IMG/VR virus record: IMGVR_UViG_3300046543_000095
Coordinates: 1 to 31,673 of that record
DNA length: 31,673 nucleotides
Direction: 5' to 3' (one strand)
Source of the DNA: a virus
Below, in pieces: positions 5 through 22,102 of this stretch. Made by a program: the position numbers and the translations under genes. The notes under the pieces were generated by a model. The model was not told the origin of the DNA and ran no database searches. It saw only the letters and a list, made by a program, of their open reading frames with translations. The number at the start of each line of letters is the position of its first letter. The first letter of the stretch is position 1.

Positions 5-502
5 TCAGCGGGGCACGCCCCGTGTCGCGCGATCGATGAAGTCGCCAGTGTCTTTCTCAAGGTAATGATGCATCGCGTCGTAGCGCGCCTCGGCTTCATC
101 ACCGCTCTGATAAGCCGGGAATTGCTCGATGCCGAACCGGTGCGCCGCCGCGATGGCGGCATCCGGCTCCAGCGCCTTGCCACCCCACACGGTGGGGATG
201 TTGTAGGTCTTGCCGTCGTCGTTTTCGAAAGACATTTGCAACAAGGACGACACGCCACCATCCGGATGGACGATCTTGCCGGTGCCGTAAAGGTTGTTGA
301 GATGCACGTTGTAGAGAAACTTTTCCTCCGGCGTGAGCGACATCGCCGCGTCGGCCTCGGGCATGTGGTTGGCGCGCGGGCCGGGATCGATCCGCTTCAG
401 CGCGTCGAGGTATTCGGGCGACGGCGGCGGCTCCTCGGCCAGCGGTGGCCGCGGCACCATCGGCGCCGGTCCCATGTCCAGGTTGTTGATCAGCGAAGCC
501 AC
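5..502 (-). CDS. Conserved phage virion-associated domain protein (function unknown)
   Basis: 165 residues, GTG start at 502; its first 13 nt overlap the end of the preceding gene (stop at 490-492), so translation is probably coupled. The protein opens with Met-Ala-Ser-Leu-Ile-Asn, one copy of the Leu-Ile-Asn tag also seen in other proteins here. A Pro-rich linker (about residues 10-55) follows, then a compact domain with NVHLNNLYGTG, HPDGGVSSLLQ and YNIPTVWGGK and a C-terminal part ending EARYDAMHHYLEKDT. I recognise this domain from many phage structural or internal proteins, but no biochemical role is established. Its place at the end of the tail and internal-protein block makes a virion or ejected protein plausible. 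The domain is recognised from memory; the function is unassigned. Confidence 0.85.
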   Translation of the reverse strand: MASLINNLDMGPAPMVPRPPLAEEPPPSPEYLDALKRIDPGPRANHMPEADAAMSLTPEEKFLYNVHLNNLYGTGKIVHPDGGVSSLLQMSFENDDGKTYNIPTVWGGKALEPDAAIAAAHRFGIEQFPAYQSGDEAEARYDAMHHYLEKDTGDFIDRATRGVPR

Positions 503-864
503 CGCGACCCCGCCGCTTCCATGCGGTAAATCACGTTGAATTCATCGCCGCCGATCTGCCGAAAGCCCGCCACGCGATTGAACCGGTGCTGCCGCGTGTC
601 GTGGTGCGGCGTGCGCGTGATGACGTGCCCGTGGGCCGCGAGGACCGGCGCGAGGCAATGGCGGACATCGGTCAGGGTGATCGGCTTGTCCGGATTGAAC
701 AGCACGAAGTGAAACTCTGGTCCGTTGACCAGCGTGGCCCCGACCAGTTCGCCGCCGCGCTCGTAACCCTCGATCGTCCAGCCCCGCCAACAGCGTTCGT
801 AATGCTCGCGCGTGAGGTAGATCGTTGGCCCGACGACCTCCCAGATGCGGTCCATGAGCGTCAT
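490..864 (-). CDS. Small conserved protein, possibly GNAT-like fold
   Basis: 124 residues; ATG at 864 overlaps the previous stop in an ATGA junction. It is mixed alpha/beta, with a Trp-rich N-terminal part (residues 7-35) and a C-terminal strand pattern (FNRVAGFRQIGGDEFNVIYR) resembling the last strands of GNAT acetyltransferases, where a 'GFR..G...F..YR' ending is common. I do not see a convincing acetyl-CoA pyrophosphate loop (R/Q-x-x-G-x-G/A), so it may be a degenerate or structural version. Podoviral genomes often carry a small GNAT-like protein in the tail or internal-protein region, which fits this position. The gene is certain; the fold call is weak inference. Confidence 0.8.
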   Translation of the reverse strand: MTLMDRIWEVVGPTIYLTREHYERCWRGWTIEGYERGGELVGATLVNGPEFHFVLFNPDKPITLTDVRHCLAPVLAAHGHVITRTPHHDTRQHRFNRVAGFRQIGGDEFNVIYRMEAAGSRWLR

Positions 865-2246
865 TCACCGCCACCGCCGCCGGGGTTGGTGTTGGTCGGA
901 TTACCGGGGGTGCTGAACGTCGGAGAACCCGACGCCGGGGTCGCGGTCGAACCCGGCGGGCCAAGCTGCCGCTGATCACCGAGGTTCGACGGTGGCCCCG
1001 TTGACTGCGTCGCCGATGAGGACGGCTGTCCGAACCGCAGCACGGAGTTGATATTCGTGTTGGCGTCGATGTTGCCGAACATCTTCAGGCCCTCGTTGAG
1101 GGTGTCCATCGTGTTGTTGAGCGCCGTCGCCTGCTGGTCCGTGTTTAAGTTCGGGTTCGTCATGAATTGCTGCATGTTTTGCAGGGCCTGGGAGTAAAGC
1201 GCCTGCGCCCCAGCCGAGTTTTGCAGCACGCGCTTGTTGTCTTCCTGGATCTGCGTGATTTTCTGTTGCGCGGTCGAATTGGCCGCGATGTTGGCCAGCG
1301 CGCCCTGATTGACGAGGTTCTGCGCGGCCAGTGTCGTCGCGTTGTTGCCCTGCGCGATGATCTGCGCCGACAGGGTCTGCTTGTCGGCCACGCTCAATGA
1401 CGTGTCGGCCTGGATCTGGGCGATCCGCTGTTGGCTCGTGTTGTTCAGCGTGGCGAGGATCTGCGCCGCCGACGATGCCTTGTCCTGCAACGTCAGTTGC
1501 GTGTTGGCGCTCAACTGCCCGAGGGCCAGCTGTGCGTTTGTCTGGATATTCTGCGCGGCCAGTGTGGTCGCGTCCTGCTTCTCCTGGTTTGTCAGCGAGG
1601 TGTCGGATTGCAGTTTCGCGATGGCCTGCGAGGTCTGACTGATCTTGTCCTGCACGCTCAGTGACGTGTTGGACTGGATGTTCGCGATGTCCTTCTGTGA
1701 CTGCGTCTGGATCTGGGCGATATTGGTCTGCCCGGCGATCTGTTGCGCCTGCAATTTCGCCGTGTTCTGCGCCGTGGTGGTGTCGGACGCCGCCTTGGCA
1801 TAGGTCGCGGCGTCGGCGGCGGCGATCGGCGTGGCGGCGGTGTAGAGCGCGGACTGCCCCGCCGTGATGCCGGTCGAGGAGTTGATCAGACCCCGCTGGT
1901 TCATCAAATTGCGGGCGTTCGCCTCGGCCTGCTGCATGAGCGGCGAGCCGGAAGCGATGATGTTGCCGATCTGATGTGAAACGGTCTGATCGGGGGTGAC
2001 GTTGAACGCGTTCGGCGCGTTCGGATCAGTCGGCGCGGCAGGCGTGGCCGTCGTCGGCGTGGCGCTGGGCGCCGCCGCGGGGGCGGTGTTCGGCGGCGTG
2101 GCCGGCGCGCTGGTGCCGTCCGGTGCCGGCGCGCTGTTGATCAGGCCGTTAGCCTGCGGCACCGCCGGAGGTGCCGTGCCCGGCGGTGGCGGGATCGGCG
2201 GCGGCGCGGTCGGGGTGTTAAGCCCCGGGCTGAGGGACGCGGACAT
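861..2246 (-). CDS. Gln-rich repeat protein, candidate internal/ejection virion protein
   Basis: 461 residues; the ATG (2244-2246) overlaps the upstream TGA by one base (TGATG). Layout: a Pro/Ala/Thr-rich disordered region (1-85), a conserved block (about 95-145: MNQRGLINSSTGITAGQSAL, then AATPIAAADAATY), a Gln/Ala/Thr-rich helical region of about 180 residues, and a Gly/Pro/Ser-rich tail ending in five glycines. The helical region holds at least four imperfect 24-residue repeats around 'TSLSVQDK ... AQxIAxLQ'. The block with RGLINSS followed by a PIA-containing stretch is familiar from podoviral structural proteins found near the tail genes. Leu-Ile-Asn occurs twice (NGLINSA and RGLINSS). 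Role as an internal or ejected protein is inferred from position and composition; a tail-fibre linker is the alternative. Confidence 0.8.
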   Translation of the reverse strand: MSASLSPGLNTPTAPPPIPPPPGTAPPAVPQANGLINSAPAPDGTSAPATPPNTAPAAAPSATPTTATPAAPTDPNAPNAFNVTPDQTVSHQIGNIIASGSPLMQQAEANARNLMNQRGLINSSTGITAGQSALYTAATPIAAADAATYAKAASDTTTAQNTAKLQAQQIAGQTNIAQIQTQSQKDIANIQSNTSLSVQDKISQTSQAIAKLQSDTSLTNQEKQDATTLAAQNIQTNAQLALGQLSANTQLTLQDKASSAAQILATLNNTSQQRIAQIQADTSLSVADKQTLSAQIIAQGNNATTLAAQNLVNQGALANIAANSTAQQKITQIQEDNKRVLQNSAGAQALYSQALQNMQQFMTNPNLNTDQQATALNNTMDTLNEGLKMFGNIDANTNINSVLRFGQPSSSATQSTGPPSNLGDQRQLGPPGSTATPASGSPTFSTPGNPTNTNPGGGGGE

Positions 2247-11107: not shown

Positions 11108-12178
11108 TCAGACCAATACTTTGGAACCGACGTTCCCAACGGCCATCCAGCCTTGATTCTCGATCATCACGGCTTTCCACCACGCGCAGCCGACGTAACC
11201 GCGCTGGCCCAACGGGTCAGACTTGGTTTTGTCGCCGGGCGGAATGAATGTCGGATCGAGCGCGCCGAGGCCGCGCACCGCGATCTGGCCCCAGGCGTCC
11301 TGCGCCGTGACGATGAACGGGTAGATGTCGATATTCGCGCCCGTGGTGGACGACAGCCCGGTGGCGCCCACACCCGCGCCGCCGTCCTGGATGGACGGGA
11401 GATCCGCCGAGGTGATGAAGCGGAACCGCTCGCACTTGCCGATTTCGTTCTGGATCGGTGACCCGGACGCGTAGGCCTCGGCGGGCACGAAGTTGGGAAG
11501 GTCCCTGATGTCAGGCTCAAGGTCGGTGTGGCTGTAAACCGTGAAGCCCTCGGCGACCGGGTCGGTGCCGAAATTTTGTGACGCCTTCAGAACCTTGTTG
11601 ACCGGTTTGCCGTGGTTGGCCTGAAGGTTGCGCGCGATGCGCCGGATGAGGCCCAGCGTCAGCCCGCCATTGGTCGTGGAGATCGATGTGCCCGCGCCGC
11701 CGTAGTAGACGTTGGTGCAGGCCCGCAACGCGCCGTAGGCGATCATTTCGTTGACGAACGTCATCCGCTCGCCAGCCTGTTCGATCATCGCCTTGGGAAT
11801 GTCATCCTCATACAAGTTGTAGGTCTTGTCTGAGAACCCGTACAAGCAACCGAATTGCTGCACGACCACGGTGATGTCCAACGGCACGATGGAGTCTGGC
11901 GGCGGGGTCACGCCCTCGGAGAGTTGATGCGCCTGGGCAATGATATTGCCCCGATCGCCCGGCCCGTTCTGGAAAAACTGGTTCTGCGACGAGGCCGTGG
12001 CCCCGGTGGCGCCATAGGGCAGCCAGCGGCGCGCGACGTACGTGTCAGAGTTGTTCTTGGGCATCGGGATCTGTCGCCCGCTGCGGCCCAATACTTCCTG
12101 CGGCACGGCGTGGCTTAGGATTTCACCTTTGAATTTCGCAAGTCGGGCGGTGGTCATGCCAAACGTTTGCATTGCCAT
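11108..12178 (-). CDS. Major capsid protein, N4-gp56 family
   Basis: 356 residues; ATG at 12178 with an AGGAG site upstream. The sequence follows the N4-gp56-type HK97-fold capsid pattern: N-terminal 'LAKFKGEILSHAVPQEVLG' and 'QIPMPKNNSDTYVARRWLPY'; an E-loop-like region; 'GFSDKTYNLYEDDIPKAMIE'; the spine helix 'TLGLIRRIARNLQANHGKPV'; then 'NEIGKCERFRFITSADLP' and a C-terminal 'GYVGCAWWKAVMIENQGWMA'. The 'IGKCERFRFITS' block is especially diagnostic. Length is close to typical for this group (about 350-400). It forms the icosahedral shell on the scaffold encoded just upstream. The 103 bp between scaffold stop and this start holds no gene, only weak hairpins and the ribosome-binding site, so capsid translation is initiated independently, as expected for a highly expressed protein. 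Confidence 0.92.
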   Translation of the reverse strand: MAMQTFGMTTARLAKFKGEILSHAVPQEVLGRSGRQIPMPKNNSDTYVARRWLPYGATGATASSQNQFFQNGPGDRGNIIAQAHQLSEGVTPPPDSIVPLDITVVVQQFGCLYGFSDKTYNLYEDDIPKAMIEQAGERMTFVNEMIAYGALRACTNVYYGGAGTSISTTNGGLTLGLIRRIARNLQANHGKPVNKVLKASQNFGTDPVAEGFTVYSHTDLEPDIRDLPNFVPAEAYASGSPIQNEIGKCERFRFITSADLPSIQDGGAGVGATGLSSTTGANIDIYPFIVTAQDAWGQIAVRGLGALDPTFIPPGDKTKSDPLGQRGYVGCAWWKAVMIENQGWMAVGNVGSKVLV

Positions 12179-12281: not shown

Positions 12282-13136
12282 TCAGCGGTTTTTGAAGCCA
12301 GACTCGAAAGCGGCCTCAACGTCGTTGGTGGCGTCGGCGGCGGGTGCCGCCCCATCGCCGCGTGGTTGTACCGCCTGGCGGATGCGGTCAGTGCGCGCAT
12401 CGGCGCGAGCCGCCTGCGCCTGGCGCGTCTGCGTCCTGGTTTGCGTCTCGCGCTGGAACAGGTTGATCGCGCGCATCACCACGGCGGCTGATTCAGTGCC
12501 GTTGATCCGCCGCTGGTAGCCGGCGTCCTTGGTCGCCAGCCACTTGCGGAACGGGTTATTGGGGTCAGGCATCTGCTGGGAGACATCGACGGCGCCGACG
12601 ATGTCCCGCCAGTCAGGATGGGCGTCCTCAAGGACCTCCACCTCACGCTCGGACGAGTGTTCGTTGAGCATGCGGCGGATGACGGCGGGATCAGCGCCGT
12701 TCCCGTTGACGCCCGAGAGAGCGCGCTCCAGCGCGGCCCGCGTGGAATTCGCCAGTTCGGGGAAATCGCGTTCCAGGTCGGCAAACGCTTCGCGCGATAC
12801 CTCGATCTTGCGACCCTGCGGCGTCTGGTCGCGCAGGCCATTGATGACTTTCTGTAGGTTGCCGATCGTCCCGAACGCTTTGGAAAGCTGTTGATCATAT
12901 GTGGCCGTCTTTGCCGCGGCGGTCCTCACATGGTCCCAGTCCGACCTCGTGATCTGGACGTAGTCCGGGTCCTTGCCGTTCGGCTTGGTCTCCCGTGGGG
13001 TTTCCGCGGGCTGAACTTTACCGGGATCGGCGCGTGGCTCCGGACGTTTCGGCGTTTCGGCTTCGAACCCGCCCGCGAAGGCAGCCTCGGCAGCCGCGTC
13101 ATCAGTGGTGGTGGTGTCGTTGTCGTCTACGTTCAT
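12282..13136 (-). CDS. Capsid scaffolding protein
   Basis: 284 residues; ATG at 13136 forms ATGA with the previous gene. It is highly charged and mostly helical: an acidic Asp/Thr-rich N-terminus, a Pro/Lys-rich linker (28-60), a coiled-coil region (about 65-105), a central helical domain ('EVEVLEDAHPDWRDIVGAV', 'NPFRKWLATKDAGYQRRING') and an Arg/Gln-rich helix ('QTRTQTRQAQAARADARTD'). This composition and its position directly before the capsid gene are typical of podoviral scaffolds. It has an E-A-A-F-x-x-G-F element at both ends: EAAFAGGF near residue 17 and EAAFESGF at the very C-terminus. Scaffolds usually bind the coat through a C-terminal helix, so the C-terminal copy may be the coat- or portal-contact element (inference). 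Confidence 0.85.
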   Translation of the reverse strand: MNVDDNDTTTTDDAAAEAAFAGGFEAETPKRPEPRADPGKVQPAETPRETKPNGKDPDYVQITRSDWDHVRTAAAKTATYDQQLSKAFGTIGNLQKVINGLRDQTPQGRKIEVSREAFADLERDFPELANSTRAALERALSGVNGNGADPAVIRRMLNEHSSEREVEVLEDAHPDWRDIVGAVDVSQQMPDPNNPFRKWLATKDAGYQRRINGTESAAVVMRAINLFQRETQTRTQTRQAQAARADARTDRIRQAVQPRGDGAAPAADATNDVEAAFESGFKNR

Positions 13137-13414
13137 GGGTTACTCCACAGTCCGGACACGCCTCGCGGTGTGTCCTCTCCGCCATCGGTCAATATTGGCC
13201 GATCTTGTCCCAGCGCGAGGAATCGCTTGATCGCGCGTATTTCGCCTCGCAGCATCGCGGTATCGAGTTCCGGGCGTGTCGCGTCGTTGCGCCGCCGGGC
13301 GTTGTCCAGTTCGCTGGCGAGCCAGCCTTCCAGGCGCCGCCACAGGGGGGACGCGCGGTCCACCGGGCCGAGGTCGAACGGCGGGTCGGGCTGCGACGGG
13401 AAGAAGTCGCTCAC
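13133..13414 (-). CDS. Small helical protein between ART paralogue and scaffold
   Basis: 93 residues, GTG start at 13414 (GTGA overlap with the ART-like gene's stop), ending in an ATGA junction with the scaffold gene. The core 'LWRRLEGWLASELDNARRRN' and 'ELDTAMLRGEIRAIKRFLAL' predicts two amphipathic helices; '[LT]A.LRG.I..IK..L.L' is a pattern I have seen in small conserved phage proteins near portal and scaffold genes. The ends are Pro/Gly-rich and probably disordered. There are no catalytic or metal-binding motifs. It may be a minor head component or assembly chaperone; function not known. Confidence 0.8.
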   Translation of the reverse strand: MSDFFPSQPDPPFDLGPVDRASPLWRRLEGWLASELDNARRRNDATRPELDTAMLRGEIRAIKRFLALGQDRPILTDGGEDTPRGVSGLWSNP

Positions 13415-15000
13415 TGGGTCTGGTCTCGCCCCTGCGTGGCGGCGGCGCCAGCGCCCGCCATGAGGCCAGCGATGCCATACCGGCGGATGATGTCCATGTT
13501 TTTCGGATCGAACACGACCGCGTTACGGGTGCCCTCGCCCGCGGCCCGGCTGTCGGCGTCGAGGTAGCGGAGGCCAGGAACGCCAGCCGCGTTCAGCGCC
13601 GCCGACGCATCAGCCTGCGAGGACCGCGAAGCCAGGCGATGATAAATCATCTGACCGCTCTCAGCCGGGTCGTAGTCGCCCGACGACGGGTGGTACATGT
13701 CGGGGGCGATCTTCGCCAGCGCCGCCTGGACATCGGGATGCTGCTCCGACAGCGATCGATCCCAGTCCAGGAATCTCGCCGGGTCGGCGTTGACCCTGAC
13801 CTCATACATATGCCCGCCCTGCGTACCGCTGGTGATGCTTTCCTTATTCGCGTCCAGCCAGTCGCGCGCGGCGCGGTATTCCCTGTCCACCGCGGCGAGG
13901 TTCTTCAACTTCGTTTCCGCCTCTAGCAGATTATCCGACCCGTGCAGGGTCTCGAGCGCCAGTGATTTACCGGGTGGAACGGTGCCCGCCTCAGCCCCAT
14001 AGGTGCCGTTCAGCACCTCAAGCAGCGGCTTGCCACCAACACGGAACCCCGGTGCGCCGGCCATGGTCTCCGGGTCTTTGTAAGTGTGCGCGACCGGCTC
14101 GGCGCCCGCGAGATATCCCGCGCCAACACCGTAGGCCTGACTGCCCTCGCCCGTGCCGATCTTCATCGGATCGAACTCGCCCAGCGGATTGCGCTCGGTC
14201 GGCGGGAACAGGTGCGGGCTGCCGTGGTAGGCCGTGAAGCCGGGTTGTTCAATGTTCGCGGGGCGGATTTGACTGCCATCGAACACCCGCAACCCGTAGC
14301 CCAGCATCGGATCGCCGCGATAATCGATCGCGTCATAGCCGTCTTGCTTCAGCCAACCGAGGAGCCGGTGCGGATCGACATCCATCGCGGCGAACTCATC
14401 GTCCCCCACGCGCCCGGCCTTGCGCGCGGCATACTCCTCCAGTTGCGAGTAGGGCATCGCCTTCCTCACCGTGACCTCGACCGGCTGCACCCGGCCATAA
14501 GATGCCGCCTCCTCGGGATGGTCAGTGAGGGATATGCCAGGGACGTGATCGTCAGGCGTCAGGTTCGGCCTGAACTCATCAAACGTCTCCGGCGAGCCGT
14601 GGAACATGATCTCTGGCGGCATGCCCGTCGCGTTGATCAACCCCCTCGATGGCGGTGGCATGTTACGCGGGATGCGCTTCGACGCCAGCGCCACGGCGCC
14701 GCCCTCGGCGCCCATCGGGCCGCCCGCGAGCATCGTCGCGTCGTGCAGTTCCATCGACGTGTCAGTGAGATCCCGGGCCTGCGTGGGCGTCATGTAGCGT
14801 TGGTCGCCCCAGATCCCACCGCCGACCGGGATGACCGACCGCACCTCGGCCTGGGCGGGGCGCGCAGGCTCGGCGGGCAACGTCGGCAACGCGCGCTCGC
14901 CCCCGAACATCCCAGACAACCAGTCCATGACCCCGCGACCAGCGGTCAACTCCGGTGGCGCCGGGTCGGCGTTCGGTGTGCCGTTGATCAAACCAGCCAC
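13411..15000 (-). CDS. Double ADP-ribosyltransferase-like (ART-PolyVal) virion protein
   Basis: 529 residues, GTG start at 15000, 7 nt after the upstream paralogue's stop, with GAGG at -7. The N-terminus (M-A-G-L-I-N-G-T...) and an internal 'SRGLINATG' at about residue 120 carry the Leu-Ile-Asn tag. Two ART-like modules follow. Module 1 (about 130-250): 'IMFHGSPETFDEFRP', 'GISLTDHPEEAASYG', 'YGLRVFDGSQIRPAN'. Module 2 (about 254-510): 'FTAYHGSPHLFPP', 'IGTGEGSQAYGVGAGYLAG', 'GHMYEVRVNADPARFLDWDR', 'GLRYLDADSRAAGEGTRN', 'AVVFDPKN'. The H-G-S and G-x-G-x-Y elements match the NAD-binding His/Tyr positions of H-Y-E-type ARTs; the third catalytic Glu is not obvious, so activity is uncertain. Such modules are known from phage polyvalent and head-delivered proteins that modify host targets. 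Position between portal and scaffold fits a packaged head protein. Confidence 0.75.
   Translation of the reverse strand: MAGLINGTPNADPAPPELTAGRGVMDWLSGMFGGERALPTLPAEPARPAQAEVRSVIPVGGGIWGDQRYMTPTQARDLTDTSMELHDATMLAGGPMGAEGGAVALASKRIPRNMPPPSRGLINATGMPPEIMFHGSPETFDEFRPNLTPDDHVPGISLTDHPEEAASYGRVQPVEVTVRKAMPYSQLEEYAARKAGRVGDDEFAAMDVDPHRLLGWLKQDGYDAIDYRGDPMLGYGLRVFDGSQIRPANIEQPGFTAYHGSPHLFPPTERNPLGEFDPMKIGTGEGSQAYGVGAGYLAGAEPVAHTYKDPETMAGAPGFRVGGKPLLEVLNGTYGAEAGTVPPGKSLALETLHGSDNLLEAETKLKNLAAVDREYRAARDWLDANKESITSGTQGGHMYEVRVNADPARFLDWDRSLSEQHPDVQAALAKIAPDMYHPSSGDYDPAESGQMIYHRLASRSSQADASAALNAAGVPGLRYLDADSRAAGEGTRNAVVFDPKNMDIIRRYGIAGLMAGAGAAATQGRDQTQ
14951..14992 (-). repeat. 42-bp direct repeat, copy A (encodes the LING tag)
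   Basis: A perfect 42-bp match to 16356-16397 lies in the same orientation. It encodes the N-terminal Leu-Ile-Asn-Gly-Thr-Pro-Asn-Ala-Asp-Pro segment of both ART-like proteins. Similarity continues with substitutions into both genes for about 120 codons, marking the 5' third of each gene as a duplication. The perfect core could result from recent recombination or from selection on the peptide. Confidence 0.95.
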
Positions 15001-15007
15001 CGTCGCC

Positions 15008-16402
15008 TCATTGCGTCTGATCCTGGGTGCCAGCCGCGGCCCCGGCGCCAGAGATGAGGCCGGCGATGCCGTAGCGGCGGATAATCGCCATGATGGACGG
15101 AGAGAACGTCACATAGTTGTGGGTGCCCTCGCCCGCCTGCCGGCTGCCGCTGTCGAGGTAGCGGATTCCGGGAATACCCGCCTCCTGAAGCGCGGCGGAA
15201 GCGGCGGTGGGGTCGCCCAGATAATTACTCCGATACAGGTCGCCCATTGTCGTCGGTTGACGGCTGTAGCTTCCCCACCCTTCCGGGTGGAGCGCGGCGC
15301 GCTGAATGTCCCACACCGCGTTATGGTCGATGTCGGGCGCCTCTTTCATCAGCCGCGCGAACTCCGGCGCATCGCCAGTAATGTTCGGGTTGTCCAACGC
15401 CCTGGTCGCGACGGCCCGCAAATCATCATTCGGTAGACTTGCAAGATAAGCCGCGCGTTCCTGCACGCCACCGGGCCTCAAATCAAACCGATCCGCCATC
15501 GCCTTCTGAACCACCGGATGCTGCTCGCTCAGCGGCTTGTCCCAGTTCAGATAGTGTTCCGGATCGGCATTGATATTGACCTCATACATATTGCCGCCGA
15601 CACGCCTGAACCGATCCGGGTTCAGGGTGTTCACATAGTCGAGGTAATGCTGGCCCCACTGGTCCGGGTTGGCCTTCGCGTCCTCGATGAGTTGTCGAGG
15701 CGAGCGGCCCAGTACCACGTTCTCCCAGAATTCACGTTGCGCGTTCAGCCTGCTCCAGCCCTCGTTGTCGAGGCCGCGCTCGTTCGCCTGGTTGTGGAGA
15801 TTGTCGTAGATCGTCTGTGCTTTCTGCCGCCCATACGACCAGTTGGCGTTCTGCACATACGTTTCAGCGGTCGGTTCCGCTCCGGCGGTGTAGTGGCCCA
15901 TGCCATACGCCTGCGCGCCCTCACCCGTGCCGATGAACGCGTCATCGAACCGGTCGAACTTCGCGCCGCTACCGTGGTAGGACGTGAAGCCAGGTGCCTC
16001 GCCCGCCGCGTTGATCAGCCCTCTCGACGGCGGTGGAAGGTTGACCGGCGTCCGCCTCGACGCCAGCGCCACCGCGCCGGTCCCGGCCTCGGCGCCCATG
16101 GGACCGCCGGCCAGCATCGTCGCGTCGTGCAACTCCATCGACGCCTCGCGCATTCGATCGGCCTGCTCGGCGGACATTGGAACGCTGCCTCCAATGTCCG
16201 TGCCGGGCCTGAAGTCGGCGCGCGGCATCGTCATGGACTGCCCGGCATAGGCGTCCCGCGCCGGCCCCGCAGGCTCCGCGGGCAGCGTCGGTAGAGTCCG
16301 CGCGCCCCCGAACATGCCCGACAGCCAGTCCATGACCCCGCCGCCCGAGGTCAGTTCCGGTGGCGCCGGGTCGGCGTTCGGTGTGCCGTTGATCAAAGGC
16401 AC
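15008..16402 (-). CDS. ADP-ribosyltransferase-like (ART-PolyVal) virion protein, paralogue
   Basis: 464 residues, GTG start at 16402 (Met-Pro-Leu-Ile-Asn-Gly). Residues 1-130 are nearly the same as in the next gene downstream: 'GVMDWLSGMFGG', 'SMELHDATMLAGGPMGAE', 'PPPSRGLINAAG'. It has one ART-like module: 'FTSYHGSGAKFDRFDDAFIG', 'GEGAQAYGMGHYTAGAE', an insertion of about 80 residues, then 'NMYEVNINADPEHYLNWDK', 'IPGIRYLDSGSRQAGEGTHN', 'YVTFSPSIMAIIRRYG'. Both paralogues end with a short Gly/Ala-rich hydrophobic stretch after 'IIRRYGIAGL' and a Gln-rich tail (DQTQ). It lacks the first module of its paralogue. It is probably packaged in the head and delivered to the host (inference from tag, position and the known polyvalent-ART family). 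NAD-dependent activity is not demonstrated. Confidence 0.75.
   Translation of the reverse strand: MPLINGTPNADPAPPELTSGGGVMDWLSGMFGGARTLPTLPAEPAGPARDAYAGQSMTMPRADFRPGTDIGGSVPMSAEQADRMREASMELHDATMLAGGPMGAEAGTGAVALASRRTPVNLPPPSRGLINAAGEAPGFTSYHGSGAKFDRFDDAFIGTGEGAQAYGMGHYTAGAEPTAETYVQNANWSYGRQKAQTIYDNLHNQANERGLDNEGWSRLNAQREFWENVVLGRSPRQLIEDAKANPDQWGQHYLDYVNTLNPDRFRRVGGNMYEVNINADPEHYLNWDKPLSEQHPVVQKAMADRFDLRPGGVQERAAYLASLPNDDLRAVATRALDNPNITGDAPEFARLMKEAPDIDHNAVWDIQRAALHPEGWGSYSRQPTTMGDLYRSNYLGDPTAASAALQEAGIPGIRYLDSGSRQAGEGTHNYVTFSPSIMAIIRRYGIAGLISGAGAAAGTQDQTQ
16356..16397 (-). repeat. 42-bp direct repeat, copy B
   Basis: Second copy of the perfect direct repeat described at 14951-14992, 1,405 bp away in the same orientation. 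It covers codons of the N-terminal tag region. Homologous recombination between the copies would remove one whole ART-like gene and leave an in-frame single gene. Confidence 0.95.
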
Positions 16403-16420: not shown

Positions 16421-16618
16421 TTACTCGTCATCGCACCCGCATTCGTCGTAACAACCGTAGACGCTGACCGGCGCGCCGCACGTATCGCAGAACGGCTCAT
16501 CGCGTCGCAGACACTTCGACTCACACATGCATCCCGGCCACTTACAGGCCAGCCCAAGCGCCTTACCCAGCGCGACCAGCCCCTCTGGCCCCCCGGGCAC
16601 GTTTTTGTAATCGCTCAT
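16421..16618 (-). CDS. Cys-rich small protein (9 Cys in 65 residues), putative metal binding
   Basis: 65 residues; ATG at 16618 forms ATGA with the preceding coiled-coil gene. Nine Cys lie in the last 42 residues: 'ACKWPGCMCESKC', 'FCDTCGAP', 'YGCYDECGCDDE'. The spacing suggests two zinc sites, or a disulfide-rich domain if it ever leaves the cytoplasm, but no signal peptide is present. The acidic C-terminus is unusual. It lies between portal and ART-like genes, so a minor head component is possible. I do not recognise the family; the Cys pattern is directly visible. Confidence 0.75.
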   Translation of the reverse strand: MSDYKNVPGGPEGLVALGKALGLACKWPGCMCESKCLRRDEPFCDTCGAPVSVYGCYDECGCDDE

Positions 16619-16806
16619 CCGCCAATCCTCCTGCGTTCCACCTGGAACGCTCGGAACGGATTATGCGCCAGCGGCGCCTTGACCTGGGCGCGCTCCACCA
16701 ACAGCCGCCGCAGCATATCCACCTCGCGCCTGAGCAACGCGTTCTCGCGCTCCATGTCGACCATCTGAAGGCCGACCTCAAGCGCGTGCTGATACCAGTC
16801 GATCAT
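16615..16806 (-). CDS. Short coiled-coil protein downstream of portal
   Basis: 63 residues. I place the start at ATG 16804-16806, which overlaps the portal stop (16803-16805) as ATGA; the longer open frame upstream is only antisense-like low-complexity sequence overlapping the portal gene. A single long heptad helix spans residues 8-42 ('EVGLQMVDMERENALLRREV', then 'DMLRRLLVER'), followed by a short basic tail ('NPFRAFQVERRRIGG'). It is likely a dimeric or trimeric coiled coil that binds another head protein. Function not known. Confidence 0.75.
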   Translation of the reverse strand: MIDWYQHALEVGLQMVDMERENALLRREVDMLRRLLVERAQVKAPLAHNPFRAFQVERRRIGG

Positions 16807-19577
16807 GGGTTCACCTGTGACGCCGCCTGACCGTTCGCGGCACGACCGGGGACCTGAACGGCTGGCGGGTTCTGGTGTTTGAACAGATCCGATCCTGTGT
16901 CGATGGTGTGCTGGCGCCGCTGTTCCGCCGTCTGCTGGTCCGCCTGCCGGGCCGCGTGCGCCGAGTCGAGCGCGTGCGTGACCGCCGCGTGATCGGTGTC
17001 CACGGCGTGCTGGCGCGCTTCCTCGGCGGTGTCGACCGCGTGCTTGTGGACATCGACCACATGCGCCGCGTGCGTGTCGCGCGTATGGATCGCGTTGTTG
17101 ATCGCGTTCAGTTGCTGTTCGACCTGTAGCTTCATCGCGGTCGACGCGAGTTCCGCCTTGGTCTGGTCGAGGCTGATCTGGTGGCGGTTGGCGTAGTCCA
17201 GCATGGCCAGTTGGCGTTTCTGTTCCATTTCGTGCAAATCGACGGTCGCCTGGACATGCAGCTTCTGCCCCTCCAGCGTGTTGGCGGCGTCGGCCACGCG
17301 TTGTTCCGCCTGCTGCGTCTGCTGATCGGCGGTCTGCTTCATCACGCCAAGCTTGATCTGCGTGTCGGCGTTTATGCGCGCGACGGTGACCGGGGGCGGC
17401 TCGGGCGGCGGCGCCGCGGCCATCTTCTCTTGCTCTTCCTCGGTGTATTGCATGTCGGTGGGATCGAGGCGCTTGCTCTTGAGGAACAACGCGGCCCACT
17501 TTTTCGGATCGATACCGTAAATTGGGTTCGCCGCCATGTTGCCCATCTGCGCGATGCTCTGGTCCTGAATGGCGCGCTCGACCAGCGCGACGGAACCGTG
17601 CGCGTCGACCTCGAATTCGCCTTTTTCCTCGTTGGGAACATCAGGATCGAGCAACAGCCATTCATAAAACTGGCGTATCAGAGGCTCGGTGATGAAGTCG
17701 TCAAAACTGTAGCCAATTGAACGGAGAAGCTGGTTCGCGTTGTTGTTCTGCAATTGCGTCGCGCCGAACGTGTCTGGCGTGGTCGATCCGGACTGCCCTT
17801 GCGTGATCAGCGGGATCGATGTCGTTTCCTCGGCGAACCGTTCCGCCAAGGTGATAATCGACATGAGTTGCTCGGTGACGTTGGGGATCGCGATGGCCAT
17901 CATCGCCTGCCGCACGTCCTGCGGCCCGTCGTTGGTCTTGAACCATATCTTGTCGGGGGTGATCGTCCACAGACCGTCCGCCGGTATGATGGCGCTCTGG
18001 TCGATGACCAACTGGCTGCCCGCGCTTTTGCCCGCGTTGTTGAGCAACGCGCGCACGGCGGCGTTGACCATGCGTTGCGGCGTCCGCATCTGTTCCGCCA
18101 CGCCGACGCCGGCCCAGCTTTCGGCGCGCCGCTGCCAAGGCATGGAGTTATACGGGAACGAGCCGCTGTCGAGCGGATTGACCGTGGCGCGGATCACCGT
18201 GTCGTTGATCAGCGTCACGATCACGAACACCTCGTCGCGCTTGTCGTTCTCGGCATCCTCGTCGGTGTAAGGATCGCGGCCCGAGGCCATGTCGATCGCG
18301 CGCATCTCCTCCTTGGTCAGCGTGCCCTGGAAATACCAGATTTCGAAACGATCCTTGTCGCGCTTCGACCCGGGACCGCGATCGGTCTCCGACCGGTAGG
18401 CCTTGTTCGGTCCCTCATCCAGCACCTGATCGATCGCGTCCCCGATATACCCGGGCAGGCTCTTAAGCTTGCGGATTTGCCGCGCCGACATGTGGTCGCG
18501 CTCAAAGATGTAGCTGCCGTCATGGATGTTCTCACCGCACGCGGGGTCCGGGAATATGTTCCACGGGTCCACCCACACCGCCGCCGGCTGGATGGTGTCC
18601 TTGATGATGACCTTAAGGTCCTCGCCGTGGCGTTGCTTCGTCAGCGCCATCACCCGTTTGGTGCGCGGCGTCGGCCCCTTCAGCACGCCAACGCCGAGGC
18701 GAGCGGCGTCGAAAATCACCTTGCGGATCTCGCCGCGATACTGACACGACAGCAGCCAGTTATAGATCCGGGTCTCAGCCGCTTTGGCCTTCTCGTCCGC
18801 CATCTGGATGTTTTCGACGGCGAGGTCCTTGACCGTCAGCGGGACGTGCCCTGGCGGCGTGGGCGAGGCCGGGGCGAGCGGCGTGCCCGGCGGTGTCAGC
18901 GCCTGCCCGGGTTGGCCCGCGGGGGGCGGCGGTGCCCCGGGCGCGGCGCCGGGGGCGGGTTGCCCGCCGCCCTGCCCAAACGCCGACGCGGCAGCCGCCG
19001 CTGCCGCCGCCATGGGGTCGCCACCGGATGGTGGGGGCGCGCCAGGTGGGGCAGCGGGCGCACCGGTCTCGCCGGGCTGCGCCGGGCGCGTCAGCGGCAC
19101 GCCCATGTCGCCATGGACGACCTGGCTGGTGTCCTCTTTCGCTTTGATCAGGCGCGGCACCGGCATCGCCCGGAACGAGAACGCCTTATCGTCGGCGGGC
19201 AGCAGGATCTCGCCCAGCTTCGCGGCCCCGGCGTCGACATAGCGCGAGGTGAGCCGCAGGAACGCGGTCGATCGGTGGTCGGGGTTCCGGTTCCTGCGCT
19301 CCGTCATCAGCGGGCCATCCACGCTCATCGGCTTGGCCCAGCGTCCACCGTCGCCCACCTCGCCACGGTTCGCGTCGTCCACGCCCTCGTAGGCCTCATC
19401 AGCGGCGCGCCACGCGTCCTCGATGCCCGACATCTTGCGCGCCATCTTCGCCTCGTCGCGCTTGCCTGCGATCTCCACGCCGATCGCGGCCAGCGTCGGG
19501 CTGTCCTCCTCGCCACCGAGGTGCGGCTCGATGAGGTCGCGAACGGCGCGCGGGAGAGCGTCGAGAACGTCGCTCAA
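16803..19577 (-). CDS. Portal protein
   Basis: 924 residues. The start is probably TTG at 19577, five bases before the upstream gene's stop triplet (19582-19584); there is no ATG or GTG near the start of the conserved N-terminus and no clear ribosome-binding site, so re-initiation is likely. The body follows the podoviral portal pattern: 'AWRAADEAYEGVDDAN', 'STAFLRLTSRYVDAGAAKL', 'AAVWVDPWNIFPDPACG', 'DKDRFEIWYFQGTLT', 'SFPYNSMPWQRRAESWAGVG', 'QMRTPQRMVNAAVRALLNN', 'EFEVDAHGSVALVERAIQDQ'. A Pro/Ala/Gly-rich insertion occupies about 160-245. The C-terminal 200 residues are helical and Gln/His-rich, with three successive 11-residue units of the form H-A-[VL]-D-[TS]-x6, expected for a portal barrel. 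It forms the dodecameric DNA entry ring that docks terminase and adaptor. Confidence 0.9.
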   Translation of the reverse strand: MSDVLDALPRAVRDLIEPHLGGEEDSPTLAAIGVEIAGKRDEAKMARKMSGIEDAWRAADEAYEGVDDANRGEVGDGGRWAKPMSVDGPLMTERRNRNPDHRSTAFLRLTSRYVDAGAAKLGEILLPADDKAFSFRAMPVPRLIKAKEDTSQVVHGDMGVPLTRPAQPGETGAPAAPPGAPPPSGGDPMAAAAAAAASAFGQGGGQPAPGAAPGAPPPPAGQPGQALTPPGTPLAPASPTPPGHVPLTVKDLAVENIQMADEKAKAAETRIYNWLLSCQYRGEIRKVIFDAARLGVGVLKGPTPRTKRVMALTKQRHGEDLKVIIKDTIQPAAVWVDPWNIFPDPACGENIHDGSYIFERDHMSARQIRKLKSLPGYIGDAIDQVLDEGPNKAYRSETDRGPGSKRDKDRFEIWYFQGTLTKEEMRAIDMASGRDPYTDEDAENDKRDEVFVIVTLINDTVIRATVNPLDSGSFPYNSMPWQRRAESWAGVGVAEQMRTPQRMVNAAVRALLNNAGKSAGSQLVIDQSAIIPADGLWTITPDKIWFKTNDGPQDVRQAMMAIAIPNVTEQLMSIITLAERFAEETTSIPLITQGQSGSTTPDTFGATQLQNNNANQLLRSIGYSFDDFITEPLIRQFYEWLLLDPDVPNEEKGEFEVDAHGSVALVERAIQDQSIAQMGNMAANPIYGIDPKKWAALFLKSKRLDPTDMQYTEEEQEKMAAAPPPEPPPVTVARINADTQIKLGVMKQTADQQTQQAEQRVADAANTLEGQKLHVQATVDLHEMEQKRQLAMLDYANRHQISLDQTKAELASTAMKLQVEQQLNAINNAIHTRDTHAAHVVDVHKHAVDTAEEARQHAVDTDHAAVTHALDSAHAARQADQQTAEQRRQHTIDTGSDLFKHQNPPAVQVPGRAANGQAASQVNP

Positions 19578-19581
19578 CAGA

Positions 19582-20640
19582 TCACGCCGTCGTGCTGTCG
19601 ATGATGAAGCCGTAGGCCGCTAAAGCCACGCACAATGCCTTACCAGCGGTGTTGCCCGCCCAGGCGCCGCTCACCGTCTGACGGACGACCGGGGCCACGC
19701 CGAACCACCCGATTTTGGAGTCACCCATGATGTCGAGGATCGAACCGCCGCTGTTGCGAAACCGCGTCACGCGTGTGGTCGAGAGGCTGTCGGGCGTGCG
19801 GACCTCAAGCCAGCCGACCGGGGTCGCGGTGCCGATGCCCGATGGCGCCGGCATGTAAAATCCATACTCATTGACGGCCTTGCCGGGGACGCCGCTAGGC
19901 CCATAGATGATGTAGTGGTTCGTGACCGTGCCGGTGCTGGCGTTGACGACCGGGTGGCCGAGGAAGTCGCACGCGTTGGTGACCGTGCCGACGCCGTTGT
20001 TGCCCGACACGCCCTGCACGCCCGCCGCCCAGACCACCGTCCCGCCCGCCACGGTGTCGATCGCGGAGGTCTCGCCGTAAACCGCCGGGGTGTGCTGCGA
20101 CGAAAAGACCGTGCCGCCGCCATTGGTCTTGATGTGCATGCGCGCGGTGAAGTTCAGCACGTCCTGCGCGTTGTTGGAGTTGATGTTCAGGATCGTCTGG
20201 AACTGGGTCGGGATCGTCTCGGCCAGCGGATCGGTCACCGTCGAGTTGATATAGACCGGCGTCGTCGGGTCGTTATTGATCGTCAGCCCACCGTTGAACG
20301 TGACCGGCCCCGCGACGGTGCCGCCCGTGGCCAGCGGCAGGAAGGCACTGCCGTCCAGCCCGGTGACCAGCGCCGATCCGGTGCTGACGAAACGGGTGTA
20401 GGGCGCGACATTGAGGCGAAAGACGCTGTTGATATCAGCGAGCATCGCGGCCGGGGGGGACGATATCTGCGCCGATGTCACCTCGACCGGCGCCCACATT
20501 CCGTCCGCCCCGGTGGCGTTCGGGTTATCGATCCCGACCGGCGCTCCGGACACCGGATCGACAAGGAACTTAAAGTTGTTCCACGGCTTGCGCGGCTGCG
20601 CGGGGGAGACCGTCGAACGGAAGGTGGTGACTACCGGCAT
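19582..20640 (-). CDS. Fibre/spike-like structural protein between terminase and portal
   Basis: 352 residues; ATG at 20640 shares one base with the preceding stop (TGATG). N-terminal residues 1-60 look like a baseplate- or virion-binding domain ('RKPWNNFKFLVDPVSG'). A fibre module follows at about 100-120 ('SAFLPLATGGTVAGPVTFNG'), then a beta-rich region and a C-terminus ending 'GWFGVAPVVRQTVSGAWAG' and 'ALAAYGFIIDSTTA', a typical ending of phage tail-fibre and appendage proteins. The location between terminase and portal is unusual for a fibre; it may be a head-attached fibre or a displaced tail fibre gene. The third fibre-type protein in the window; the specific role is open. Confidence 0.75.
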   Translation of the reverse strand: MPVVTTFRSTVSPAQPRKPWNNFKFLVDPVSGAPVGIDNPNATGADGMWAPVEVTSAQISSPPAAMLADINSVFRLNVAPYTRFVSTGSALVTGLDGSAFLPLATGGTVAGPVTFNGGLTINNDPTTPVYINSTVTDPLAETIPTQFQTILNINSNNAQDVLNFTARMHIKTNGGGTVFSSQHTPAVYGETSAIDTVAGGTVVWAAGVQGVSGNNGVGTVTNACDFLGHPVVNASTGTVTNHYIIYGPSGVPGKAVNEYGFYMPAPSGIGTATPVGWLEVRTPDSLSTTRVTRFRNSGGSILDIMGDSKIGWFGVAPVVRQTVSGAWAGNTAGKALCVALAAYGFIIDSTTA

Positions 20641-20831
20641 CAGCGCAGGCCCCCTCGCGGTAACGGCACTTCACCCAGCAGGAAGGACACCAGGATCAGA
20701 ATGAAGATCAGCGCGACGATCGCGATGGCGATCGTGCTGAACGGTTGCGGTAGAGGAATCATCTGAATGATCCAGATAATGAGGCCCAGGACCAGGCACA
20801 GGACCAGCAGCCAGATCAGCAACGAGATCAT
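20640..20831 (-). CDS. Two-TM small membrane protein, holin-like candidate
   Basis: 63 residues; ATG at 20831 overlaps the terminase stop as ATGA. Two hydrophobic helices: about residues 2-24 (Leu/Ile/Trp-rich) and 30-53 (Ile/Ala/Leu-rich), joined by a short Pro-rich turn 'MIPLPQPFS', with an Arg-containing C-terminus. This size and topology fit class II-like holins, and the same type of protein occurs often in phages near structural genes. No endolysin is beside it in the window, so the lysis role is not proven; a membrane anchor for packaging or ejection is the alternative. TM segments are seen; function is inferred. Confidence 0.75.
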   Translation of the reverse strand: MISLLIWLLVLCLVLGLIIWIIQMIPLPQPFSTIAIAIVALIFILILVSFLLGEVPLPRGGLR

Positions 20832-22102
20832 CCCAGCATCCCCATGCCTGAGTCATGCGTTTCGAACACCGGCACGCGCGGTCGCGCCTCGGTGGCCGGG
20901 TCGCGCGTCACGGCGCCGTAGCGACCGGCGTCGGCGGCGTGTGAGGCCCAGTCATGGTGCGGGTGGTCCTGAAAGCGCCTGTTCTTGTCGTCCCACGCCT
21001 TGCGGTATTGCCGCAAAGCCTCAATCAGGCGGTCGCATTTCTTTATATCGAACATGCATCGAGGCAGCATGGCGCGCACCGCGTCGATGCCGTCCTCGAT
21101 GCCGATGTTGGGCGCGAGGATGAACCGGATGCCGAGGCCCGCGGCGGTCTCGCGGCGCGTTTTGCCGGTGCCGAATTCGCGCACCTCGATGTCGTGCGGC
21201 GCGATGTGGCGGCTGTAAACGTATGGTTTCGCTTGCAGAACCTTGGCGTAATGCGACAGACCCTCGCCGCTCATCTCGTAATAGTCGATCACGCGGATCT
21301 CGCGCTGGTATCGTTGCACGAACCAAATAGCCGTGCTGTCGCCGACACCCAGATCCCACCACGTCTCAACGCGAAGGTTCGGCTCGTAAGGCACGTTGCC
21401 GATGCGGCCTTCCTTCTCGGCGTCGGACATCTGCCGACCGTAGTAGGCGCCCACCAGGGCGGCGCTGAAGCTGCAATAAAACTCTTGCTGGATCATGTCT
21501 TCCGACATGCCGGCGGCGCGCTCCTCATCGATGACATCGGGACCGATCACCCGGGTGTCATCGACCGTGAGTAGCTGCGCGAACCACGATGGATTGCCCT
21601 TCGCCATCTCGTAAAGCATTGCGCCATGGTTACGACCGCGCGCCGTGTAGATGAACACCGCCCAACCGCCGTTCTCGGCGAGGATCGGTCGGATGTAGTC
21701 CCAGGCGGCGGGGTCGGCGACCGAGTATTCGCTGAACACCACGCCGACCGGGTTGGCGCCGATCAGCGCGTTGTAGTTGTCACTGCCCACGAGTTGCCAG
21801 ACCGAACCGCATTTCAGTTCGATCTTCATTTCGTCTTTCCGATGATTGATCCGGATCGAGGGCGGGAACGCCTGGTCGATCATCCTGCGGCCCGCGCGAT
21901 CGATGCCGTCCCACACCGTTTTGCGCGCCTGCGCCTGGGTCGGCAGCATGTGCCAATAGGTGCCCTTGCGCTGGTGCGCCGCGGCGGCGGTCCAGTTGAG
22001 AGCGACGGAGTCCTTGCCAGCGCGTCGGTGCCACACGGCGACGGCGCGTTTGCCGCCGCCCTCCAGGTGGTCCCAGAGCGGCATCTGATAGTCGTTGGGC
22101 AC
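20828..22102 (-). CDS. terL: Terminase large subunit (DNA packaging ATPase/nuclease)
   Basis: 424 residues, GTG start at 22102 ('PNDYQMPLWDHLEGGGKRAV'); the frame is open upstream to a TAA but offers no other start. ATPase: Walker A variant 'WHRRAGKDS' (residues 24-32, Lys30), Walker B 'VGVVFSEYS' with Glu125, coupling motif 'YTARGRNHG' (152-160). RNase H-like nuclease: Asp250 in 'WWDLGVGDST', Asp304 in 'APHDIE', and C-terminal Asp384/Asp391 in 'HHDWASHAADAGRY'. All expected catalytic residues are present. It pumps DNA through the portal and cuts the concatemer. The gene follows the small terminase after an intervening Acb2-like gene. It has no Shine-Dalgarno sequence, so expression probably depends on coupling. 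Confidence 0.95.
   Translation of the reverse strand: MPNDYQMPLWDHLEGGGKRAVAVWHRRAGKDSVALNWTAAAAHQRKGTYWHMLPTQAQARKTVWDGIDRAGRRMIDQAFPPSIRINHRKDEMKIELKCGSVWQLVGSDNYNALIGANPVGVVFSEYSVADPAAWDYIRPILAENGGWAVFIYTARGRNHGAMLYEMAKGNPSWFAQLLTVDDTRVIGPDVIDEERAAGMSEDMIQQEFYCSFSAALVGAYYGRQMSDAEKEGRIGNVPYEPNLRVETWWDLGVGDSTAIWFVQRYQREIRVIDYYEMSGEGLSHYAKVLQAKPYVYSRHIAPHDIEVREFGTGKTRRETAAGLGIRFILAPNIGIEDGIDAVRAMLPRCMFDIKKCDRLIEALRQYRKAWDDKNRRFQDHPHHDWASHAADAGRYGAVTRDPATEARPRVPVFETHDSGMGMLG

What the first reader, a model, noticed from the sequence alone, without database searches (positions are those of the whole stretch)
13411..16402. Tandem, partly duplicated ADP-ribosyltransferase-like genes with three ART modules in the head-gene cluster
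Seen: two adjacent paralogues with near-identical first 130 residues and the same C-terminal ending, one with one ART-like module and the other with two (three FHGS/YHGS starts in total). Known: ART-PolyVal and related phage ARTs (such as T4 Alt, which is packaged) modify host proteins on infection. Position between portal and scaffold, plus the Leu-Ile-Asn tag, suggests that these are loaded into the head and injected as host-takeover or counter-defence effectors. Different ART modules may have different targets. The usual third catalytic Glu is not clear, so some modules may be inactive binding domains.
Basis: partly seen in the sequence, partly recalled or inferred. Interest (0 to 1): 0.82.

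Follow-up and report, generated by a model that had tools for sequence, protein, structure and literature searches.

The report
Swappable ADP-ribosyltransferase cargo of phage heads
Two neighbouring phage genes encode probable host-modifying (ADP-ribosyltransferase) proteins built from a conserved front tag, an exchangeable middle part and a constant enzyme-like end; the tag also occurs on other proteins likely to ride inside the virus particle, which would make it a loading signal that can be tested.

Summary
The tandem pair is real: A (13411-15000) has two ART modules, B (15008-16402) has one, and both share a leader and a C-terminal tail, between portal and scaffold genes. The leaders are 73% identical, not near-identical. 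The A2 model matches ART-superfamily structures. A1 is a weaker ART (Pfam E=2.6e-5; structure rows all ART, Z below 4). B is a homologue of A2. The third catalytic residue in this clade is reported as Asp, not Glu. A1 and A2 keep it; B has Ser.

Two things go beyond the finding. (1) In phages with almost identical neighbouring genes this locus is one gene with the same leader and ART end, but a different middle: GNAT or another module. (2) A short LIN-x-[AT]-P motif in the leader recurs far above chance (13 seen, 0.285 expected), almost only in a coiled virion-type protein, an internal-virion-type transglycosylase and these ART proteins.

Best reading: polyvalent-type effectors, probably head-packaged by a short tag in the manner of T4's capsid targeting sequence, then injected. 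Packaging and activity are inferred, not shown. Known kind, new variant.

The parts
13411..15000 (-). Gene A, 529 aa: leader, ART module A1, ART module A2, hydrophobic tail
   Evidence: ORF; Pfam ART-PolyVal at residues 129-252, E=2.6e-5, 25.5 bits against cut-off 31.2; structure model
14623..15000 (-). A leader (residues 1-126), predicted mostly disordered, LIN at residues 4 and 121
   Evidence: pLDDT 30-56; 73% identical to B leader, dN/dS 0.30
14974..14991 (-). LINGTP motif of A
   Evidence: motif scan
14245..14622 (-). A1, type-I ART-PolyVal-like module in the exchangeable slot (H134, Ser157 where PARPs have Tyr, D241)
   Evidence: Pfam; alignment with other phage type-I modules; fold rows all ART
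13477..14241 (-). A2, type-II ART module (H259, E285, Y296, Y307, N493, D498)
   Evidence: alignments A2 and A3, residue counts, PDB matches
13414..13476 (-). A tail, ending GIAGLMAGAGAAATQGRDQTQ, shared with B and relatives
   Evidence: alignment A1
15008..16402 (-). Gene B, 464 aa: leader directly joined to one ART module and tail
   Evidence: ORF; alignment
15998..16402 (-). B leader (residues 1-135), 94-98% identical in protein to the leader of single-gene relatives
16379..16396 (-). LINGTP motif of B
   Evidence: motif scan
15074..15991 (-). B ART module, type II (H143, Y171 kept; Ser434 in place of Asp)
   Evidence: alignment A2; residue counts
861..2246 (-). 461-aa coiled protein with GLINSAP in a variable Pro/Thr/Ala-rich N-terminus; second carrier of the tag
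5..502 (-). 165-aa protein starting VASLINN; its homologue in L050 (69%) sits between portal and the 93-aa gene in another phage
16803..19577 (-). Portal protein (SU10-type), context
   Evidence: Pfam SU10_portal 58.2 bits; PHROGs
13133..13414 (-). 93-aa gene, conserved partner between the cargo locus and scaffold
   Evidence: synteny
12282..13136 (-). Scaffold-like protein, context
   Evidence: position and synteny
11108..12178 (-). Major capsid protein, context
   Evidence: phrog_1357 E=7.9e-54
16421..16618 (-). 65-aa Cys-rich ORF between the portal end and B, absent from single-gene relatives
   Evidence: upstream sequences compared

Best explanation
A and B are two diverged alleles of one phage cargo gene held in tandem. 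Each protein has a mostly disordered leader with a Leu-Ile-Asn motif, an exchangeable slot (an ART in A, nothing in B), a constant ART module and a short hydrophobic tail. Most likely the leader loads the protein into the head or the ejection apparatus during assembly, as the capsid targeting sequence does for T4 internal proteins. The protein is then injected with the DNA, and the ART and slot modules modify host proteins (take-over or counter-defence). Shown here: the architecture, the predicted ART fold of A2, the slot exchange between near-identical phages, the non-random tag and its restriction to few protein families, and purifying selection. Inferred: packaging, injection, enzymatic activity and targets. 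B, which lacks the Asp, is more likely a binding or altered-activity version than a standard transferase.
For: ART fold: the A2 model matches tankyrase, ParT, MbcT, AcrIF11 and toxin ART domains at Z 5-7; the top row is the cyanophage A4 pre-ejectosome (Z 9.6). Almost invariant H, Y, Y, E and N in about 148 homologues. Slot exchange: relatives with MCP 99-100% and portal 96-98% identity carry GNAT (Pfam above cut-off) or another module in the slot. More distant relatives carry another GNAT, phrog_18666 or a second ART. Head link: location next to portal, scaffold and MCP; the same order in Sulfitobacter phage phiGT1; the ART end matches phrog_873 'head and packaging'; vir555 carries the ART inside a 1974-aa protein close after an internal virion protein. 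Tag: 13 motif hits against 0.285 expected in 106,029 residues; among 991 clade ORFs all 15 carriers are the 461-aa family (9), ART leaders (4), L050 and an SLT protein matching 'internal virion protein with endolysin domain'. Leader dN/dS 0.04-0.11 between orthologues although predicted disordered. A second, unrelated leader is likewise shared by ART proteins and one other protein in other phages.
Against: No proteomic or biochemical evidence. Pfam scores of A and B stay below the curated cut-off. Of 58 distant clade loci with both portal and MCP none has a type-II ART in this interval, so the gene is accessory and not part of the head machinery. The LIN motif in the 461-aa protein is internal, not terminal. 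Nothing here shows what the leader binds. Third-residue conservation is loose in the family (D 95, N 11, S 8, E 8), so activity cannot be read from sequence.
Confidence: 0.6

Rival explanations
1. The proteins are ART-type effectors made late in infection that act in the producing cell (lysis timing, exclusion of competing phages) and are never packaged; the leader is an unrelated interaction or stability segment.
For: The genes are accessory and are found at either the portal-scaffold or the TerL-portal position, as moron genes can be. No virion data.
Against: The leader motif is shared with an internal-virion-type SLT protein and a coiled virion-type protein. The same ART end occurs in phrog_873 'head and packaging' proteins and close after an internal virion protein in vir555.
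Confidence: 0.2
2. Some or all modules are inactive, NAD- or protein-binding domains; the proteins serve as minor head or ejection components.
For: B has Ser in place of the Asp; A1 has Ser at the Tyr position; the position corresponding to PARP Glu is Asn in almost all homologues.
Against: H, Y, E and N are almost invariant across about 148 homologues, as expected for an active pocket. GNAT and other enzyme-like modules swap into the same protein, as expected of effectors.
Confidence: 0.15
3. The tandem pair is an assembly artefact joining two strain variants of a single gene.
For: A resembles the L009-type gene and B's 3' part the L002-type gene; all close relatives have one copy.
Against: A second record has the identical tandem with the same junction. 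A's leader differs from every single-gene leader (76-80% at DNA level), so the internal junction is not a simple chimera of known variants.
Confidence: 0.05

Closest known systems
Phage polyvalent proteins with ART (Tox-ART-HYD2 clade, Pfam PF18760 ART-PolyVal) and GNAT domains, Iyer et al. 2017 (PMC5512222)
   Same: Same ART clade by motif and Pfam match; ART next to ART or GNAT in one polypeptide; late structural gene context. phiGT1's annotation names BAR32501, the GNAT-ART phage protein cited there, as closest phage homologue of its own ART gene.
   Different: Small (464-552 aa), no metallopeptidase or other hub domains seen; tandem genes; a LIN-motif leader; slot exchange between near-identical phages; B lacks the Asp.
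T4 Alt and T4 internal proteins with capsid targeting sequence (PMC5512222, PMC3012670)
   Same: Diverse effectors behind one conserved signal; Alt is a packaged ART.
   Different: No sequence relation to the T4 signal was tested; packaging is not shown; a prohead protease cleavage was not looked for.
AcrIF11, an ART anti-CRISPR (PMC12421852)
   Same: Phage ART fold (6kyf matches A2 at Z 6.9); Asp as a catalytic residue (D115) is reported for it.
   Different: Single small domain, not head-linked; no evidence that A or B acts on CRISPR.
Cyanophage A4 pre-ejectosome protein (PDB 9k3a)
   Same: Best structural row for A (Z 9.6, 152 residues, 18% identity): an ART-like part within an ejection protein.
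   Different: A giant ejection protein (chain residues 858-1605 spanned); the link rests on one structural alignment; no sequence match was found with profiles.

Membership tests
ART-PolyVal (PF18760) / Tox-ART-HYD2 clade | Profile match over Pfam's curated cut-off (31.2 bits) | tested here: not met
   A 25.5 bits (E=2.6e-5, profile 6-137 of 140), B 18.5 bits; the relative L126 reaches 52.5
ART-PolyVal (PF18760) / Tox-ART-HYD2 clade | ART fold | tested here: met
   A2: PDB rows with Z above 5 are nearly all ART-superfamily. A1: all 47 rows ART but Z at most 3.8. B by homology only
ART-PolyVal (PF18760) / Tox-ART-HYD2 clade | His in strand 1 | tested here: met
   A H134 and H259, B H143
ART-PolyVal (PF18760) / Tox-ART-HYD2 clade | Tyr in strand 2 | tested here: inconclusive
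   Present in A2 (Y296) and B (Y171); A1 has Ser157 by motif alignment
ART-PolyVal (PF18760) / Tox-ART-HYD2 clade | Asp in strand 5 | tested here: inconclusive
   Asp in A1 (D241) and A2 (D498); Ser in B (S434). Motif alignment only, no ligand-bound structure
Polyvalent proteins (Iyer 2017) | Two or more effector domains in one polypeptide, encoded with phage late genes | tested here: met
   A has two ARTs; relatives combine GNAT + ART, ART + ART, phrog_18666 + ART; head gene context. B alone has one domain
Polyvalent proteins (Iyer 2017) | Packaged and injected | not testable with these tools
   Needs virion proteomics
T4-like capsid targeting sequence | Short conserved signal on diverse cargo | tested here: met
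   LIN-x-x-P motif on the ART proteins, the 461-aa family, L050 and an SLT protein; internal rather than terminal in the 461-aa family
T4-like capsid targeting sequence | Signal directs encapsidation | not testable with these tools
   Needs a reporter fusion or virion proteomics
T4-like capsid targeting sequence | Signal removed by prohead protease | not tested
   No protease gene was searched for in the window

The most novel reading that the evidence does not exclude
This phage clade uses a short linear motif, [GSA]LIN-x-[AT]-P in a disordered leader, as a general loading address for head or ejection-apparatus cargo. Any module placed behind it (ART, GNAT, transglycosylase, unknown domains) is packaged and injected, giving a freely exchangeable effector slot in the manner of T4 internal proteins but with an unrelated signal. 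A second phage group would use a different leader (MA[DE]xxRLAAAL) in the same way.
Probability: 0.45. Interest if true: 0.78.

Novelty: new variant of a known kind. Interest (0 to 1): 0.58.

Why it matters
Head-packaged ARTs have been proposed widely from gene context, but for phages outside the T4 group I know of no defined loading signal for them. Here a compact motif, shared by otherwise unrelated virion-type proteins and lying in a leader under strong purifying selection, makes that question directly testable with a reporter fusion. The exchangeable slot would let one list phage-injected effectors by reading what lies behind the tag.

Tried and rejected
H-Y-E reading: rejected for this clade, since the literature gives H-Y-D and the Asp is present in A1 and A2. 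Sequence profiles against solved structures found no ART; weak rows there are chance. Foldseek alone gave no PDB match at E <= 0.001 for A or A1; VIA-align was needed. Relatives of A1 as a single query: only itself, so its alignment used type-I modules from other phages. Isolated-phage relatives of the 461-aa protein: none; its weak profile match to the phiX174-type minor spike protein H (E=0.12) is treated as a coiled-coil coincidence. GC content of the pair (66%) does not differ from the window (65%), so there is no compositional sign of recent foreign origin. No host could be assigned. The L002 slot module (FYRAT...) matched no family.
Full report
Observation. The window is a 31,673-base virus record. 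On the - strand, in order of transcription: TerL (20828-22102), a 352-aa gene, an SU10-type portal (16803-19577), a 65-aa ORF, B (15008-16402), A (13411-15000), a 93-aa gene, a scaffold-like gene, the major capsid protein and tail genes. A and B are paralogues at both ends; the leaders are 73% identical. Three [FY]HGS starts are present. The pair recurs identically in a second record.

What the modules are. Pfam places A1 in ART-PolyVal over its full length at E=2.6e-5 but below the curated score, and B at E=0.004. There are two module types. Type I (A1) has the classical ART-PolyVal layout; type II (A2, B) begins HGSPHxF, then IGTGEGAQAYG about 15 residues on, and ends NxVVFDP. The two types stand in tandem in several other phage proteins, for example in L196, L206 and L163. 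About 148 type-II homologues keep His (143), the GTGEG Glu (147), two Tyr (148 and 147) and, where the end is aligned, Asn (120 of 128), whereas the Asp of VFD varies (D 95, N 11, S 8, E 8). The AlphaFold model of A gives A2 a pLDDT mostly of 80-98 and the leader a low one. Of the PDB rows aligned to A2 nearly all with Z above 5 are ART-superfamily; the top row is a cyanophage pre-ejectosome protein. A1 modelled alone gives only ART-superfamily rows, but with Z at most 3.8, so its ART identity rests mainly on Pfam. Foldseek alone found no PDB match at E <= 0.001 for either.

Catalytic residues. Iyer et al. describe polyvalent-protein ARTs as having His in strand 1, Tyr in strand 2 and Asp in strand 5 (PMC5512222). 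AcrIF11, another phage ART, also depends on an Asp (PMC12421852). A2 has H259, Y296 and D498. B has H143, Y171 and Ser434, a change shared with L002. A1 has H134 and D241 but Ser157 where A2 has Tyr; its relatives also lack Tyr there. From my own knowledge of PARP1, the position of its catalytic Glu corresponds by motif to the almost invariant Asn (N493). So A2 is the best candidate for activity and B the poorest. This is a motif-level inference, not a tested one.

Exchangeable slot. Relatives with nearly the same MCP (99-100%) and portal (96-98%) have a single gene at this place. The leader is 94-98% identical to B's, with dN/dS 0.04-0.11. The slot then holds a GNAT (L009; Pfam 35.9 bits against cut-off 27) or an unidentified module (L002; on this contig the MCP is not covered), followed by the ART and the same tail. 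In L119, L125 and L126, from phages with portals near 70% identity, the gene lies between TerL and portal instead. It has the same plan with GNAT, phrog_18666 or a second ART (52.5 bits) in the slot. A's ART end is closest to L009's and B's to L002's (74% and 76%), so the tandem holds two alleles. Of 58 more distant loci with both portal and MCP none has a type-II ART between them; L074 has a weak ART-PolyVal match there. The gene is therefore an accessory.

The tag. LIN-x-[AT]-P starts A, B, L125 and L126. The pattern L[IL]N[AGSTD][ATVS]P occurs 13 times in 106,029 residues of clade proteins against 0.285 expected from shuffles (maximum 3 in 200). Among 991 non-redundant clade ORFs 15 carry it: nine members of the 461-aa family (window 861-2246), four ART genes, a 172-aa protein in L050 and a 280-aa protein in L315. 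In the 461-aa family GLIN is kept in all members (10 of 10) within an otherwise variable Pro/Thr/Ala-rich stretch. The L315 protein has an SLT domain (48.4 bits) and matches 'internal virion protein with endolysin domain'. The L050 protein has a homologue in this window (5-502), which starts VASLINN. Caveats: related sequences are not independent, so 13 is not 13 separate events, and the pattern was chosen after seeing the first examples; but the motif recurs in four protein families with no detected relation. In other phages a different leader, MA[DE]xxRLAAALRYQQ, is shared by ART proteins and one non-ART neighbour, the same principle with another signal.

Mechanism. [quoted passage not shown] The present genes look the same in plan: constant tag, variable cargo, placed among head genes. 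Head linkage is also suggested by phiGT1, which has portal - structural gene - ART gene - small gene - scaffold - MCP, by vir555, where the ART sits in a giant protein close after an internal virion protein, and by phrog_873. Loading, injection and modification of host proteins are inferred. Targets are unknown.

Verdict. The kind (polyvalent phage ART effector) is known. The LIN tag shared with internal-virion-type proteins and the exchange of the slot between near-identical phages are, as far as I could find, not described for this clade, and make a new variant worth testing.

Noticed in passing
window 861-2246 (-): 461-aa Gln/Asn/Thr-rich coiled protein, no Pfam match, conserved in the clade, with invariant GLIN in a variable N-terminus; possibly an ejection or tail-interior protein.
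   Followed up: partly
window 5-502 (-): 165-aa LIN-starting protein of unknown function; its homologue lies between portal and the 93-aa gene in L050, so this family also changes place.
   Followed up: partly
window 16421-16618 (-): 65-aa Cys-rich (zinc-ribbon-like) ORF just before B, absent from single-gene relatives.
   Followed up: no
window 19582-20640 (-): 352-aa gene between TerL and portal without family match; in L009 it is replaced by a 260-aa gene sharing only about 73 residues, a second exchange point. It also shares a 72-residue stretch with the tail-fibre-type gene at 2432-4060.
   Followed up: no
L019 1034-2080; L013 632-2278: Leader-ART proteins of another phage group: one has a truncated ART followed by a weak ParB_N match, the other a second HGT-type module after the ART.
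   Followed up: no
L216 (G030), open frame of 4056 aa: Giant phage protein with four ART-PolyVal matches in one open frame.
   Followed up: no
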